Below, one piece after another: positions 42,492 through 64,000 of a DNA stretch of 64,000 bases. Below the pieces are notes generated by a model. The model saw only the letters and a list, made by a program, of their open reading frames with translations, made no database searches and was not told the DNA's origin. The stretch covers positions 535,563 to 599,562 of the forward strand of contig NZ_FNOG01000002.1 of NCBI RefSeq assembly GCF_900106525.1. Reading direction: 5' to 3'. The translations under genes were made by a program, and so were the position numbers. Source of the DNA: Lysobacter enzymogenes (GTDB lineage: Bacteria; Pseudomonadota; Gammaproteobacteria; Xanthomonadales; Xanthomonadaceae). Within the stretch, counting starts at the first letter, position 1. Every line of letters starts with the position of its first letter.

Positions 42492-43223
42492 CTAAGCCAA
42501 CAGACGGGCGACCGTCGCGATGACTTCGTCGCGCCGGGTTTCGAGGAAAAAATGCCCGCCGTCGAATCCGTGCATCGACGTGTCGCCCTGGGTTTCCTCG
42601 CTCCAGCCGCTCATGTGTTCGCCGACCAGTTCGTCGCCGCGGCCGTACAACGCGTCGATCGGCAGGCGCCATGACGGGCTCGGCGCGCGCACGTAGTCCT
42701 CGCTCAAGCGCAGGTCGGCGCGGATCGTCGGCAACAGCACACGCATGAGTTCGGCGTTGGCCAGCACCGCATCGGGCGTGCCTTGGTACTGGCGCAAGCG
42801 CGCGATCAGCGCCGGCTCGGGCAGTTGGTGCAGGCCGATTTCCGGTTCGCGCAGGCTCGGCGCGGCGCAGCCGGACACGATCAGCCGCTCGGGCAGCGGC
42901 AGGCCGCGGTCGGCGCAGGCGCGCGCGGTTTCGAACGCCATCAACGCGCCGAGGCTGTGGCCGAAGAACGCGAACGCCGGCGCGCGTTCGGCGGCGACCG
43001 CATCGGCCAACGCCTGGATCAGCGGCGGCCACTCGTGCATCGGCGCTTCGGCCAAACGTTGCGCTCGCCCGGGCAGTTGTACGGCGCGCACCCGGATCCA
43101 CGCCGGCAGGCGTTCCTGCCAGGGCAGGAACGCGACCGGATTGCCGCCGGCGTAGGGGAAGCAATACAGGCTCAGGCGGCCGGCCGGCGGTGGCCGGCCG
43201 ACGATCCACGACCCTGCGCTCAT
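42492..43223 (-). CDS. Type II (editing) thioesterase of the PKS-NRPS cluster
   Basis: Stand-alone alpha/beta-hydrolase thioesterase of 243 aa, GrsT/SrfAD type, expected to strip mis-primed or stalled acyl groups from carrier domains. Motifs: CFPYAGGN near residue 23, nucleophile elbow [13 protein letters not shown] (Ser near 87), an Asp in the YGRGDELV segment and the catalytic His in FDGGHFFLE. The start ATG overlaps the NRPS stop (ATGA), which places it as the last gene of the PKS-NRPS operon. A longer start at 43250 would extend into the NRPS gene and has no support. Confidence 0.93.
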
Positions 43224-46200
43224 GCCTGCGCAGCCGCCTGCCGACGCCACTCGTCCACGATGGCGCGGCCCAGGCCGGCGGCGTTAGGCGGCTGCATCAT
43301 GCTTTCGTGGTCGCCCTCGGCGCGGCCGTGGATCTCGCCGTCGCGCTCGCTGTGCGGATGCAACGGCCAGGCCTGCGCGCCGGGTTCGCCGACCCACAGC
43401 CGCTGCGGGCGAACCCGCAGCGACGGCGGCCGATAGCCGCGCAGCAAGCCGAAGCAGGCCAGCATCGTGCGCATGCGGCTGCGCAGGTGCGCGAGCTGCT
43501 GCGGCGGAATCGGCGTTCCGGTCCACGCTTGCAGGAAGCTCAGCGCCTGCGCCTGCGCTTGCGGCGCCAGGAACGGCTCGGGTTGCAGTTCGGCCGCGCG
43601 CAGTTGCGCGTCCAAGGCTGCGTGCTCGTCCGCATCGAGGAAGCGGCCGCGCATCGAACCGATGGCCAGGGCCATCGCGTAGGTCCATTCGTCCTGCGCC
43701 GACTGCGGTTCGATCGGACGGCAGTCCAGCAGGGTCAGCGAATCGACCCGGCGCCCGCGCCGCTCCAGGCTCTGCGCCACCGCGGTCGCGAACACGCCGC
43801 CGGCCGACCAGCCGACCAGGCGGCAGCCGCCTTCGCCATGGATCCGTTCGATCTCGTCGGCGTAGGCCTCGGCCAGACCTTCGAGATCGTCGAAACGCGC
43901 CGCGAGCTCGTCCGGGTCCGGCGCCTGCAAGCCGTACACCGGCCCGGCTTCGCCCAGGGTCTGGGCCAGGGCGAGGTACGGCGTCACGCTGCCGTCGATC
44001 AGGTGCAGGCAGAACGTCGGCACGCCGGCGGCGGCGCGGCGCAGCGGCACCGCCAGCAGCCCATGCAGGTCGCGCTCCAACGCCGCGGCCAGTTCGGCCA
44101 CGCTCGGCCGGGCCAACAGCGCGGCCAGCGGCACCTCGCGCCCCAGGGCCTGTTGCAGGCGCGCGAGCGAACGCATCGCATTGAGCGAATGGCCGCCCAG
44201 GGCGAAGAAATCGTCGTAGCGGCCGATGCGTTCGACGCCCAGGAGTTCTTGCCACTCCGCGGCGATGGCGCGCTCGATGGGCCCCTGCGGCGGCGCGTAG
44301 CCGCGCGCCGCCAGCGCGGCGGCGTCCGGCGCCGGCAAGGCGCGCCGGTCGAGCTTGCCGTTCGGCGTCAGCGGCAGCCCATCCAGCAGCACATAGGCCG
44401 CGGGCAGCATGTAGTCGGCCAAGGTCTGCGCGAGTTGTTCGCGCAACTGCGCCGGCTCCAGCGTACTGCCCGGCCGCGCCACGACGTAGGCGACCAGATG
44501 CTTGTCGGCGGCGGACTCGCCGCGCGCGATCACCACCGCTTCGCGCACACCCTCGCACTGCGCCAGCGCCGCTTCGATTTCGCCCGGCTCGACCCGATAG
44601 CCGCGGATCTTGACCTGGAAATCGTTGCGGCCGAGGAACTCGAGCGTGCCGTCGGCGCGCCAGCGCGCCTGGTCGCCGGTCTTGTACATGCGCGCATCGG
44701 GCGACTCCGCGAACGGATCGGGCAGGAAGCGCTCGGCGGTGAGCGCATCGCGGCCGAGATAGCCGCGGCCGACGCCGCGGCCGCCGATGTGCAGTTCGCC
44801 GACTGCGCCCACCGGCACCGGCCGGCCGCGCGCATCGAGCAGGTACAGGCGCGCCCCGGCGATCGGGCGGCCGAGCGGAACGGCGCCGCCGCAATCGCCG
44901 GCGAGGATGCGGTGCGCGGTCGCGATCACCGTGGTTTCGGTCGGCCCGTACACGTTCCACAGCCGCTGCGGCGGCGCCGGGCCGCGCAGGGTCGCGGCGA
45001 TGCGCGCCGGGTCGAGCACGTCGCCGCCAACCAACAGATCGCGCAGGTGCGCGAACGCCGGCTGCAAGGCTTCGGCATGCTCGTTGAACAACCCGGTCGG
45101 CAGCATCATCTGGGTCGCGCCGCAGGCCAGCAGTTCGGCGTTGAGCCGGCCCGCATCGAGCAAGGCCTCGCGCGGCACCACGTGCAGGCGGGCGCCGTTC
45201 AACAGCGCGCCCCAGACCTCCCAGGTGGTCATGTCGAAGGCCTGGCTGGAGCAGTGCGCGAAGCAGTCGTCGGGCTGGAATCCGATGCGGCCGTTGCCGG
45301 TCATCAGTTCGACCACGCCGGCATGTTCGAGCATCGCGCCCTTGGGTTGGCCGGTGGAGCCGGAGGTGTAGATCACATGCGCCAGCGAGCGCGCGGCCGT
45401 CGCCGGCGCGGCCACGTCCTCGGCGCGCGGCGATTGCGCTGCGATGACGGCGACGGTGGCTGCGTCGTCGAGCAACACGGCAACCGGCGGCGACGCTGCG
45501 TCGCAAGCAGGCAGCAACCGCTGCCATTGCGCATTTTCGGTCAGCACCGCGCGCGCACCGCTGTCGGCCAGCAGGTAACGCTGGCGTTCGAGCGGATAGG
45601 CCGGGTCCAGCGGCACGTAGGCGCAACCGGCCTTGAGCACGGCGAGCAGGCCGACCACGAACTCGGGGCCGCGCGGCAGGCACACGGCGATGCGCGATTC
45701 GGCGTCCAGGCCGAGCGCGATCAGGTGCTGGGCCAAGCGGTTGGAATCGGCTTCGACCTCGGCATAGCTGAGCTGGCGTTCGCCGCAGCTGATCGCGATG
45801 GCGGCAGGCGTGGCTTGCGCCTGCGCGCGGAAGCGCGCGTGGATCGTTTCGGCTGTGACCGCATCGGCGGATGCGAGCGCGTTGGCGTCGATTCCCTCGT
45901 CGGCATCGATCGTCGCGCTCGCGCCGTCAGCTAGCGCGAACCGCTGCAGCAGCAACGTGCGCTCTTCGGTCGGCAGCACATCGATGGCGGCCAGCGCGCC
46001 GCGCTCCGGACTGGCCAGCGCGTCGAGCAATCCCTCGACCGCGGCGCGCAGGTTGGCGCCGATACGCTGCGGATCCATCGGCGCGGCGCATTGCACGCCT
46101 AGCGAGAAACCCTCGCCGTCGTCGTTGAGGTTCAGCGCCAACGGATAGTTGCTGCGGCCTTCGCCGCCGAGCACGCGCACACCGTCCCACAGCTCGGCGG

Positions 46201-62960: not shown

Positions 62961-64000
62961 ATGAGCTCGCCATCGAAGCGGAAAGCCGGGCTGATCTTCG
63001 TTTTCTTCACCGTCCTGATCGATGTGCTGTCGTTCGGCGTGATCATCCCGGTGCTGCCGCACCTGCTCGAACAGTTCGCCGGCGGCAGCGTGTCGGACGC
63101 GGCGTGGTGGGTGGGCATCTTCGGCGTGGTGTTCGCCTCGATCCAGTTCGCCTGTTCGCCGCTGCTGGGCGCGTTGTCGGACCGCTACGGGCGACGCCCG
63201 GTGATCCTGCTGTCGTGCTTCGGCCTGGGCGTGGACTTCATCGTGATGGCGCTGGCCGACGGGCTGGCCTGGCTGATGGCCGGACGGATCGTGTCGGCGG
63301 TGTTCGCCGCCAGCGCGCCGGTCGCCAACGCCTACGTCGCCGACGTCACCCGCGAACAAGACCGCGCGCAGGCTTACGGCCTGCTCGGCGCGGCGTTCGG
63401 CGTCGGCTTCATCCTCGGCCCCTTGATCGGCGGCGTGCTCGGCGACTACGACCTGCGCTATCCGTTCTGGCTGGCCGCGGCGCTGGCCCTGGCCAACTTC
63501 CTCTACGGCTGGCTGGTGCTGCCCGAATCGTTGCCGCCCGAGCGCCGCGCGCCGCGCGTGGACTGGGCCCAGGCCAATCCGTTCGCCTCGCTGCGCTTCC
63601 TGCGCGAACAACCGCAGGTGCTGGCCCTGGCCGCGGTGGTGTTCCTGCACTCGCTGGCGCAGTTCTCGCATCAGATCGTGTTCGTGCTCTATGCCGACTA
63701 TCAGTTCGGCTGGGGCCAGAAGCAGGCCGGCTATGTGCTGGCCGCGGTCGGCGCGATGGCGGCGGTGGTCAGCGTGGCGCTGGTGGCGCCGATGGCGCGG
63801 CGCTTCGGCGAGCGCGCCACCCTGCTGTTCGGCCTGGTCTGCGGCACGCTGGGCCTGTGGATGCTGGCCGCGGGCGACACCCGCTGGTTCTTCTGGGGCA
63901 TGCCGATCGCGGCCTTGTGGTATCTGGCCCTGCCCGCGGCGCAGGCGATGGTGAGCCAGCGCATCGACGCGCAGGCGCAAGGCCGCGCCCAGGGCGCGCT
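62961..64000 (+). CDS. TetA-type MFS multidrug exporter (3' truncated)
   Basis: The frame is open to the window edge, giving 346 residues without a stop. Begins MSSPSKRKAGLIFVFFTVLI, with the first helix ending LSFGVIIPVLPHLL (motif D1-like), motif A GALSDRYGRRPVIL near residue 75, and motif C GFILGPLIGGVLGD near 150, as in drug:H+ antiporters of the TCR/Tet family. It is divergent from the PKS-NRPS operon, so it may export or confer self-resistance to the product. Start choice: ATG 62961; an in-frame ATG at 62949 is also possible. Confidence 0.9.
   Translation, partial: MSSPSKRKAGLIFVFFTVLIDVLSFGVIIPVLPHLLEQFAGGSVSDAAWWVGIFGVVFASIQFACSPLLGALSDRYGRRPVILLSCFGLGVDFIVMALADGLAWLMAGRIVSAVFAASAPVANAYVADVTREQDRAQAYGLLGAAFGVGFILGPLIGGVLGDYDLRYPFWLAAALALANFLYGWLVLPESLPPERRAPRVDWAQANPFASLRFLREQPQVLALAAVVFLHSLAQFSHQIVFVLYADYQFGWGQKQAGYVLAAVGAMAAVVSVALVAPMARRFGERATLLFGLVCGTLGLWMLAAGDTRWFFWGMPIAALWYLALPAAQAMVSQRIDAQAQGRAQGA

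What the first reader, a model, noticed from the sequence alone, without database searches (positions are those of the whole stretch)
42492..64000. Hybrid PKS-NRPS cluster predicted to make an acylated D-rich tetrapeptide
A one-module reducing PKS, a four-module NRPS with terminal TE and a type II TE form an operon by two ATGA overlaps, with a divergent MFS exporter. The reading suggests acyl-Ser-X-(Ser-like)-(hydrophobic), with D residues at positions 1-3. I do not match this architecture to HSAF, WAP-8294A, lysobactin or tripropeptin, the Lysobacter systems I know. Domain content is seen directly; the product is inference.
Basis: partly seen in the sequence, partly recalled or inferred. Interest (0 to 1): 0.85.

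Follow-up and report, generated by a model that had tools for sequence, protein, structure and literature searches.

The report
Polyene lipotetrapeptide gene cluster in Lysobacter
Four neighbouring genes look like an intact factory for a small fatty peptide with a light-absorbing polyene tail; it is a sound find but of a known kind and quite possibly the already published lysohexaenetide cluster.

Summary
A PKS (KS-AT-DH-KR-ACP, no ER), a four-module NRPS with TE and a type II TE lie on the minus strand with two ATGA overlaps, beside a divergent MFS exporter. No frame has an internal stop, and dN/dS against an orthologous cluster in one other species is 0.24-0.30. Five of five relatives whose site was fetched lack these genes there.

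The reading is partly supported. Residue 1 is Ser. Residue 2, left as X, carries a published His code. Residue 3 is Ser-derived but unresolved; residue 4 is probably aliphatic. D residues at 1-3 are supported: C2-C4 form one clade with the two C domains that follow the D positions of a lysobactin-type line in the same genome.

The main correction is the PKS: its KS groups with HSAF-type iterative PKSs, apart from the modular KSs compared, so it probably makes a conjugated polyene. Best prediction: polyenoyl-D-Ser-D-His-D-X-(Leu-like).

This is probably that cluster or an ortholog, but neither its sequence nor the paper was available.

The parts
42492..43223 (-). type II (editing) thioesterase, 243 aa, GHSLG motif
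   Evidence: Pfam PF00975 8.6e-44; motif; ATGA overlap with NRPS
43220..57199 (-). NRPS, 4659 aa: C-A-PCP x4 and TE; codes DVWHVSLVDK, DSALIAEVWK, DLWHIGLLDK, DMWMLGVVIK
   Evidence: C2-C4 in one clade with the C domains after Leu1 and Arg6 of a lysobactin-type line
57196..62655 (-). PKS, 1819 aa: KS-AT-DH-KR-ACP, no ER, probably iterative
   Evidence: KS tree; ATGA overlap with NRPS
62656..62948 (.). divergent intergenic region between PKS and exporter, presumed promoters
   Evidence: position only; promoters not tested
62949..64000 (+). MFS exporter; gene continues to position 64274 outside the window
   Evidence: PF07690 5.9e-58; 87% ortholog only in G005, the other 18 of 20 genomes have relatives of 56% or less

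Best explanation
The gene set is a complete assembly line for a short lipopeptide with a conjugated polyene tail. The single KS-AT-DH-KR-ACP protein works iteratively: each cycle adds malonate, reduces and dehydrates but does not reduce the double bond, so a polyenoyl chain builds up on its ACP. C1 of the NRPS passes this chain onto Ser. Modules 2-4 add His, a residue selected by an altered Ser-type pocket, and an aliphatic residue; the dual C domains C2-C4 epimerise residues 1-3 to D before each bond is made. The TE releases the product, probably as a linear acid, the type II TE clears misprimed carriers, and the MFS protein exports it. Predicted product: polyenoyl-D-Ser-D-His-D-X-(Leu-like). 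It is probably the lysohexaenetide cluster or its ortholog. Shown by computation: gene order, domains, codes, clades, selection, boundaries. Inferred: iteration, chain length, release, export, residues 3 and 4, identity with lsh.
For: Domains and motifs. KS in a 100/100 clade of 26 of 43 rows: 22 labelled KS-AT-DH-KR (the fused HSAF/PTM-type PKSs among them), the two window-type PKSs and two from loci cut short; the nine modular KSs of the own genome that were in the tree lie outside. Code reading checked inside the same genome: contig C8 is compatible with the lysobactin order at 11 of 11 positions (8 by recalled standard codes; Phe, Arg and Ile fitted) and contig C23 with lysocin E. C2-C4 share a 100% (SH-aLRT) clade with just the two C domains after Leu1 and Arg6 there, which carry the same HHxxxDH motif as C3 and C4. 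A2 code published for His. 4 of 4 codes identical in the G005 ortholog; dN/dS 0.24-0.30. Empty sites in 5 of 5 relatives fetched; exporter ortholog only where the cluster is. Among 20 genomes of the genus the only full-length KS-AT-DH-KR PKSs outside frames of 3170-3476 aa are those of G000 and G005, and PMC11451712 reports the lysohexaenetide BGC in two of the genomes it mined.
Against: No sequence of lshA or structure of lysohexaenetides was available; that LshA is an entirely iterative PKS is recalled from the abstract. PMC11451712 also reports an uncharacterised hybrid with a single cis-AT PKS module in more than one genome, which could be this cluster instead. Iteration is inferred from phylogeny and lack of ER; most PKSs of that clade have no tested mode. 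C1 has DHxxxDG instead of HHxxxDG, in both species, and its tree group is mixed. A3 and A4 codes gave no match in the full-text search. The type II TE is more diverged than its neighbours (73% identity, dS 0.61 against 0.28-0.33), so it may have another history.
Confidence: 0.72

Rival explanations
1. Same machinery, but not lysohexaenetide: an undescribed polyenoyl tetrapeptide (for example the uncharacterised single-cis-AT hybrid BGC that PMC11451712 reports in more than one genome).
For: PMC11451712 lists such a BGC beside the lysohexaenetide BGC; identity with lsh could not be tested.
Against: Other cis-AT hybrids occur in several genomes of the genus and could account for that BGC: KS-AT followed by C in G011, G012, G013 and G018, and KS-AT-KR in G003 and G010. 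A hexaene would need an iterative KS-AT-DH-KR type PKS, and the only stand-alone one seen in 20 genomes is this.
Confidence: 0.25
2. The PKS extends only once: a starter acyl-CoA is elongated by one enoyl unit, giving a short 2,3-unsaturated acyl tetrapeptide.
For: Only one PKS module is present, and one round is the textbook reading of one module.
Against: No loading domain or acyl ligase among the four cluster genes; the KS lies in the clade with HSAF-type iterative PKSs and apart from the nine modular KSs of the same genome in the tree.
Confidence: 0.12
3. C2 and C4 dehydrate Ser-type residues to dehydroalanine instead of epimerising, as proposed for solanimycin.
For: Solanimycin's SolG C domain is placed in the dual clade and proposed to dehydrate Ser (PMC10204066, passages); the NRPS passes the SolG model's cut-off.
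Against: C2-C4 group with the C domains after Leu1 and Arg6 of the lysobactin-type line, and C3/C4 share HHxxxDH with them, not the HHxxDDx reported for SolF-H. The SolG score is summed over four modules. No SolG sequence was in the tree.
Confidence: 0.08

Closest known systems
Lysohexaenetide (lsh) cluster, Lysobacter sp. DSM 3655 (Xu et al. 2023, doi 10.1016/S1875-5364(23)60473-X; paper not held, seen only as a reference in PMC11451712, abstract recalled)
   Same: Lysobacter, PKS-NRPS, linear lipopeptide with hexaene chain and an entirely iterative PKS (recalled)
   Different: unknown: neither gene sequence nor residues could be compared
Myxochromides (mchA-C, Myxococcus, Stigmatella)
   Same: iterative type I PKS makes a methyl-ended polyene acyl chain that caps an NRPS peptide (passages and reference list of PMC9581180 and PMC10204066)
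   Different: 5-7 NRPS modules, MT and E domains, cyclic depsipeptides starting with Thr; here four modules, dual C domains, no MT or E
HSAF and other polycyclic tetramate macrolactam PKS-NRPS
   Same: KS-AT-DH-KR-ACP iterative polyene PKS (recalled); ten genomes of the genus hold relatives at 41-45% identity that I take for this type
   Different: PKS and NRPS in one open frame of 3170-3476 aa, one Orn module (recalled); here separate proteins and four other residues
Stand-alone PKS plus bimodular NRPS loci of Massilia horti, Paenibacillus pinisoli, P. paeoniae and P. sp. 1011MAR3C5
   Same: closest full-length PKS relatives of the genome-contig scan (56% Massilia, 46-47% Paenibacillus), PKS beside a separate NRPS with C first
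   Different: NRPS codes read Orn then Cys (labels recalled), with a heterocyclisation-type domain carrying DxxxxDxxS
Solanimycin (Dickeya solani)
   Same: polyene acyl cap on a Ser-derived peptide (PMC10204066); NRPS matches the SolG model
   Different: PKS modules lack cis-AT, a Ser module is thought to iterate, five dehydroalanines (PMC10204066); here cis-AT and four modules

Membership tests
stand-alone iterative polyene PKS feeding an NRPS | single KS-AT-DH-KR-ACP protein without ER and without further PKS modules in the cluster | tested here: met
stand-alone iterative polyene PKS feeding an NRPS | KS groups with known iterative polyene PKSs | tested here: met
   100/100 clade with HSAF/PTM-type fused PKSs; nine modular KSs of the own genome outside; myxochromide MchA and LshA could not be included
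stand-alone iterative polyene PKS feeding an NRPS | PKS acts repeatedly and yields a conjugated polyene | not testable with these tools
   needs chemistry
lysohexaenetide (lsh) cluster | orthology to lsh genes | not testable with these tools
   paper not held; one paper in the library names the compounds
lysohexaenetide (lsh) cluster | product is a linear hexaene lipopeptide | not testable with these tools
   domain content compatible
lysohexaenetide (lsh) cluster | rare in Lysobacter (two genomes in PMC11451712) | tested here: inconclusive
   2 of 20 genomes of the genus; compatible, but the sets of genomes differ
HSAF / polycyclic tetramate macrolactam | PKS fused to an NRPS module in one protein | tested here: not met
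   PKS and NRPS are separate genes with an ATGA overlap
myxochromide | 5-7 modules with MT in module 1 and E in module 2 | tested here: not met
   four C-A-PCP modules; Pfam shows no methyltransferase and only four condensation-family stretches
lysobactin, lysocin, WAP-8294A, tripropeptin | 8-12 modules with their residue order | tested here: not met
   four modules reading Ser-His-X-aliphatic; lysobactin- and lysocin-type lines lie elsewhere in the same genome
solanimycin | PKS without cis-AT | tested here: not met
   cis AT domain, PF00698 4.3e-80
dual condensation/epimerisation C domains | clade and N-terminal HH motif of C domains that follow known D residues | tested here: met
   D positions of lysobactin recalled

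The most novel reading that the evidence does not exclude
The product is an undescribed polyenoyl-D-Ser-D-His-D-X-(Leu-like) lipopeptide, distinct from the lysohexaenetides, whose D-Ser/D-His head could bind metal and whose third residue comes from a new pocket code (DLWHIGLLDK).
Probability: 0.22. Interest if true: 0.45.

Novelty: new member of a known kind. Interest (0 to 1): 0.3.

Why it matters
If the reading holds, this is a compact four-gene route to a His-containing polyene lipopeptide, small enough to express whole, in a genome that also carries lysobactin-type and lysocin-type lines. It links the iterative PKSs of tetramate macrolactams to a wider set of stand-alone PKS-plus-NRPS loci in Massilia and Paenibacillus. 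For a specialist it is useful but not surprising.

Tried and rejected
PDB route to the pocket codes: two queries in the wrong frame gave nothing and were repeated in frame; the codes were taken from the multiple alignment instead, by motif positions recalled from the GrsA literature. Considered that HHxxxDH in C3 and C4 marks dead domains: rejected, because both lysobactin-type dual C domains have it. Considered solanimycin membership from the top NCBIfam hit: rejected (cis-AT, summed score). Considered that the neighbouring MFS gene at L021:3593-4918 belongs to the cluster: rejected, 19 of 20 genomes have it. A class-wide search at the strict cut-off E <= 1e-300 found, in 369 genomes, only the window's own copy; weaker relatives would not show there. 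Motif patterns that were written too strictly (A3, A10, second DH motif) returned nothing; two searches found these motifs. Literature searches for lysohexaenetide, for Lysobacter with hexaene and iterative, and for the four codes gave one, no and one paper; searches added nothing decisive (of the 8 papers I saw passages of one, PMC10745450). MIBiG and antiSMASH are not available here. No structure prediction was run.
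Full report
Observation. The gene set is as described. The PKS (57196-62655, minus) gives KS, AT, DH, KR and ACP matches and no enoylreductase; the NRPS (43220-57199, minus) gives four C, four A, four carrier and one TE match; the type II TE is 42492-43223. The two ATGA overlaps are visible. The divergent gene is an MFS transporter starting at 62949 and ending 274 bases beyond the window. Motifs were found for KS, AT, KR, ACP, both thioesterase serines and four carriers, for both DH motifs, and the five A-domain and carrier motifs counted occur four times each. 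C1 has DHxxxDG, the other C domains HHxxxDG or HHxxxDH. No gene has an internal stop. That the genes form one operon is inferred from the overlaps.

Boundaries and distribution. Of 20 genomes of the genus (the own genome among them) two carry this PKS, G000 and G005 (89%); ten others carry a 41-45% relative inside an open frame of 3170-3476 aa, which I take for the HSAF/PTM type from domain order and genus. G005 has the whole cluster at the same place with syntenic flanks. I fetched the site in five of the 18 genomes that lack this PKS; in five of five the flanks ending at 42442-42468 and beginning at 65015-65060 face each other without the cluster: 96 bases apart in G002, 172 in G001, 736 in G019, 2.6 kb in G017 and 10.8 kb in G015, the longer ones with other DNA between (alignments over 150 bases only). 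So the variable unit is the three genes plus the exporter and about 740 bases to its right. The exporter ortholog (87%) is also only in G005; the other 18 genomes have relatives of 56% or less, and G000 itself has further ones at 54 and 40%. The next MFS gene is in 19 of 20. dN/dS between the two species is 0.24 (PKS), 0.28 (NRPS), 0.30 (type II TE) and 0.24 (MFS), which argues for a working line; the type II TE is more diverged than the rest (73% identity, dS 0.61 against 0.28-0.33) and lacks the overlap in G005, so it may have a history of its own.

Residues. Codes were read from an alignment of all A domains at hand, with positions recalled from the GrsA literature. Control: the same reading of contig C8 is compatible with Leu-Leu-Phe-Leu-Leu-Arg-Ile-Thr-Gly-Asn-Ser, the lysobactin order (structure recalled), at 11 of 11 positions; eight are standard codes as I recall them, while Phe, Arg and Ile were fitted. 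Contig C23 fits the lysocin E order quoted in PMC9581180 (passages) at 11 of 12, the first module being cut by the contig end; several labels there, Arg, Glu and Trp among them, are likewise fitted. Module 1, DVWHVSLVDK, is one letter from the two published Ser/Dha codes DVWHLSLVDK and DVWHMSLVDK (PMC12283262). Module 2, DSALIAEVWK, is named there with the His codes, able to accept beta-hydroxy-His (one section and passages seen). Module 3, DLWHIGLLDK, matches Ser, Glu, Gln and Hpg codes at six of ten each; its whole domain is 76% identical to A1. Module 4, DMWMLGVVIK, is nearest to a recalled Leu code at seven of ten. All four codes are identical in G005.

Stereochemistry. The tree holds 91 C-family domains (quick method, SH-aLRT; C stretches under 380 residues were dropped, and not all of the 76 matches were fetched whole). 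C2-C4 and their G005 counterparts form a 100% group with just two other domains: those after Leu1 and after Arg6 of the lysobactin-type line, the two D positions of lysobactin (recalled). The E-type domains, the C domains after them and the ordinary C domains lie elsewhere. HHxxxDH in C3 and C4 is shared with both lysobactin-type domains, so it is not a defect. C1 falls in a loose group of seven that holds three C domains from other KS-AT-DH-KR loci (L043, L044, L045) but also two long-branched domains of the own genome from other lines, so the tree does not settle its type.

PKS. In a tree of 43 KS domains (careful method) the window KS lies in a 100/100 group of 26 rows: 22 labelled KS-AT-DH-KR, among them the fused HSAF/PTM-type PKSs, the two window-type PKSs, and two rows from loci cut short. 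The nine modular KSs of the own genome in the tree lie outside; others of that genome were not fetched. Nearest is Massilia horti, then Paenibacillus and Tumebacillus. Only the HSAF/PTM type has a known iterative mode (recalled). With KR and DH but no ER, iteration yields a conjugated polyene. Chain length cannot be predicted.

Comparison. The lysohexaenetides of Lysobacter sp. DSM 3655 are the best candidate. What I saw is their mention in PMC11451712 (outline, one section and passages: BGC in two genomes); the abstract of the original paper, with LshA as an entirely iterative PKS, is recalled, and that paper is not held. Against certainty, PMC11451712 also names an uncharacterised hybrid with one cis-AT PKS module in more than one genome, though other hybrids of that sort exist in the genus. 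I therefore file it as a new member of a known kind, with about two chances in three that it is the known lsh cluster.

Limits. 

Noticed in passing
L046 9884-21906 (Massilia horti), L042 9923-22107, L055 9938-22103, L057 9938-22119 (Paenibacillus): Stand-alone KS-AT-DH-KR-ACP PKS followed by a two-module NRPS reading Orn then Cys (labels recalled), the second module with a DxxxxDxxS heterocyclisation-type domain: predicted polyenoyl-Orn-thiazoline, a product I cannot name.
   Followed up: partly
G000 contig C8 about 330000-365000 (L066, L067) and C23 1-43174 (L070-L072): The same genome carries lines whose codes are compatible with lysobactin (11 of 11, three labels fitted) and lysocin E (11 of 12, first module cut by the contig end, several labels fitted).
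   Followed up: partly
L080 about 5032-15863 (G015), same site as the cluster: A different 10.8 kb stretch with a 1595-aa RHS-repeat protein sits at the site, and G017 has another 2.6 kb there, so the place seems open to insertions.
   Followed up: partly
window 35-120, 166-251, 28951-29045, 41298-41389; L021 18628-18713: A repeat of about 90 bases recurs in the window and its neighbourhood, each copy matching one stretch of G005 at 87-93%.
   Followed up: no
window 33212-35730 (-): A sigma-70-family sigma factor gene lies near a gene for a DUF4097 protein, outside the cluster.
   Followed up: no
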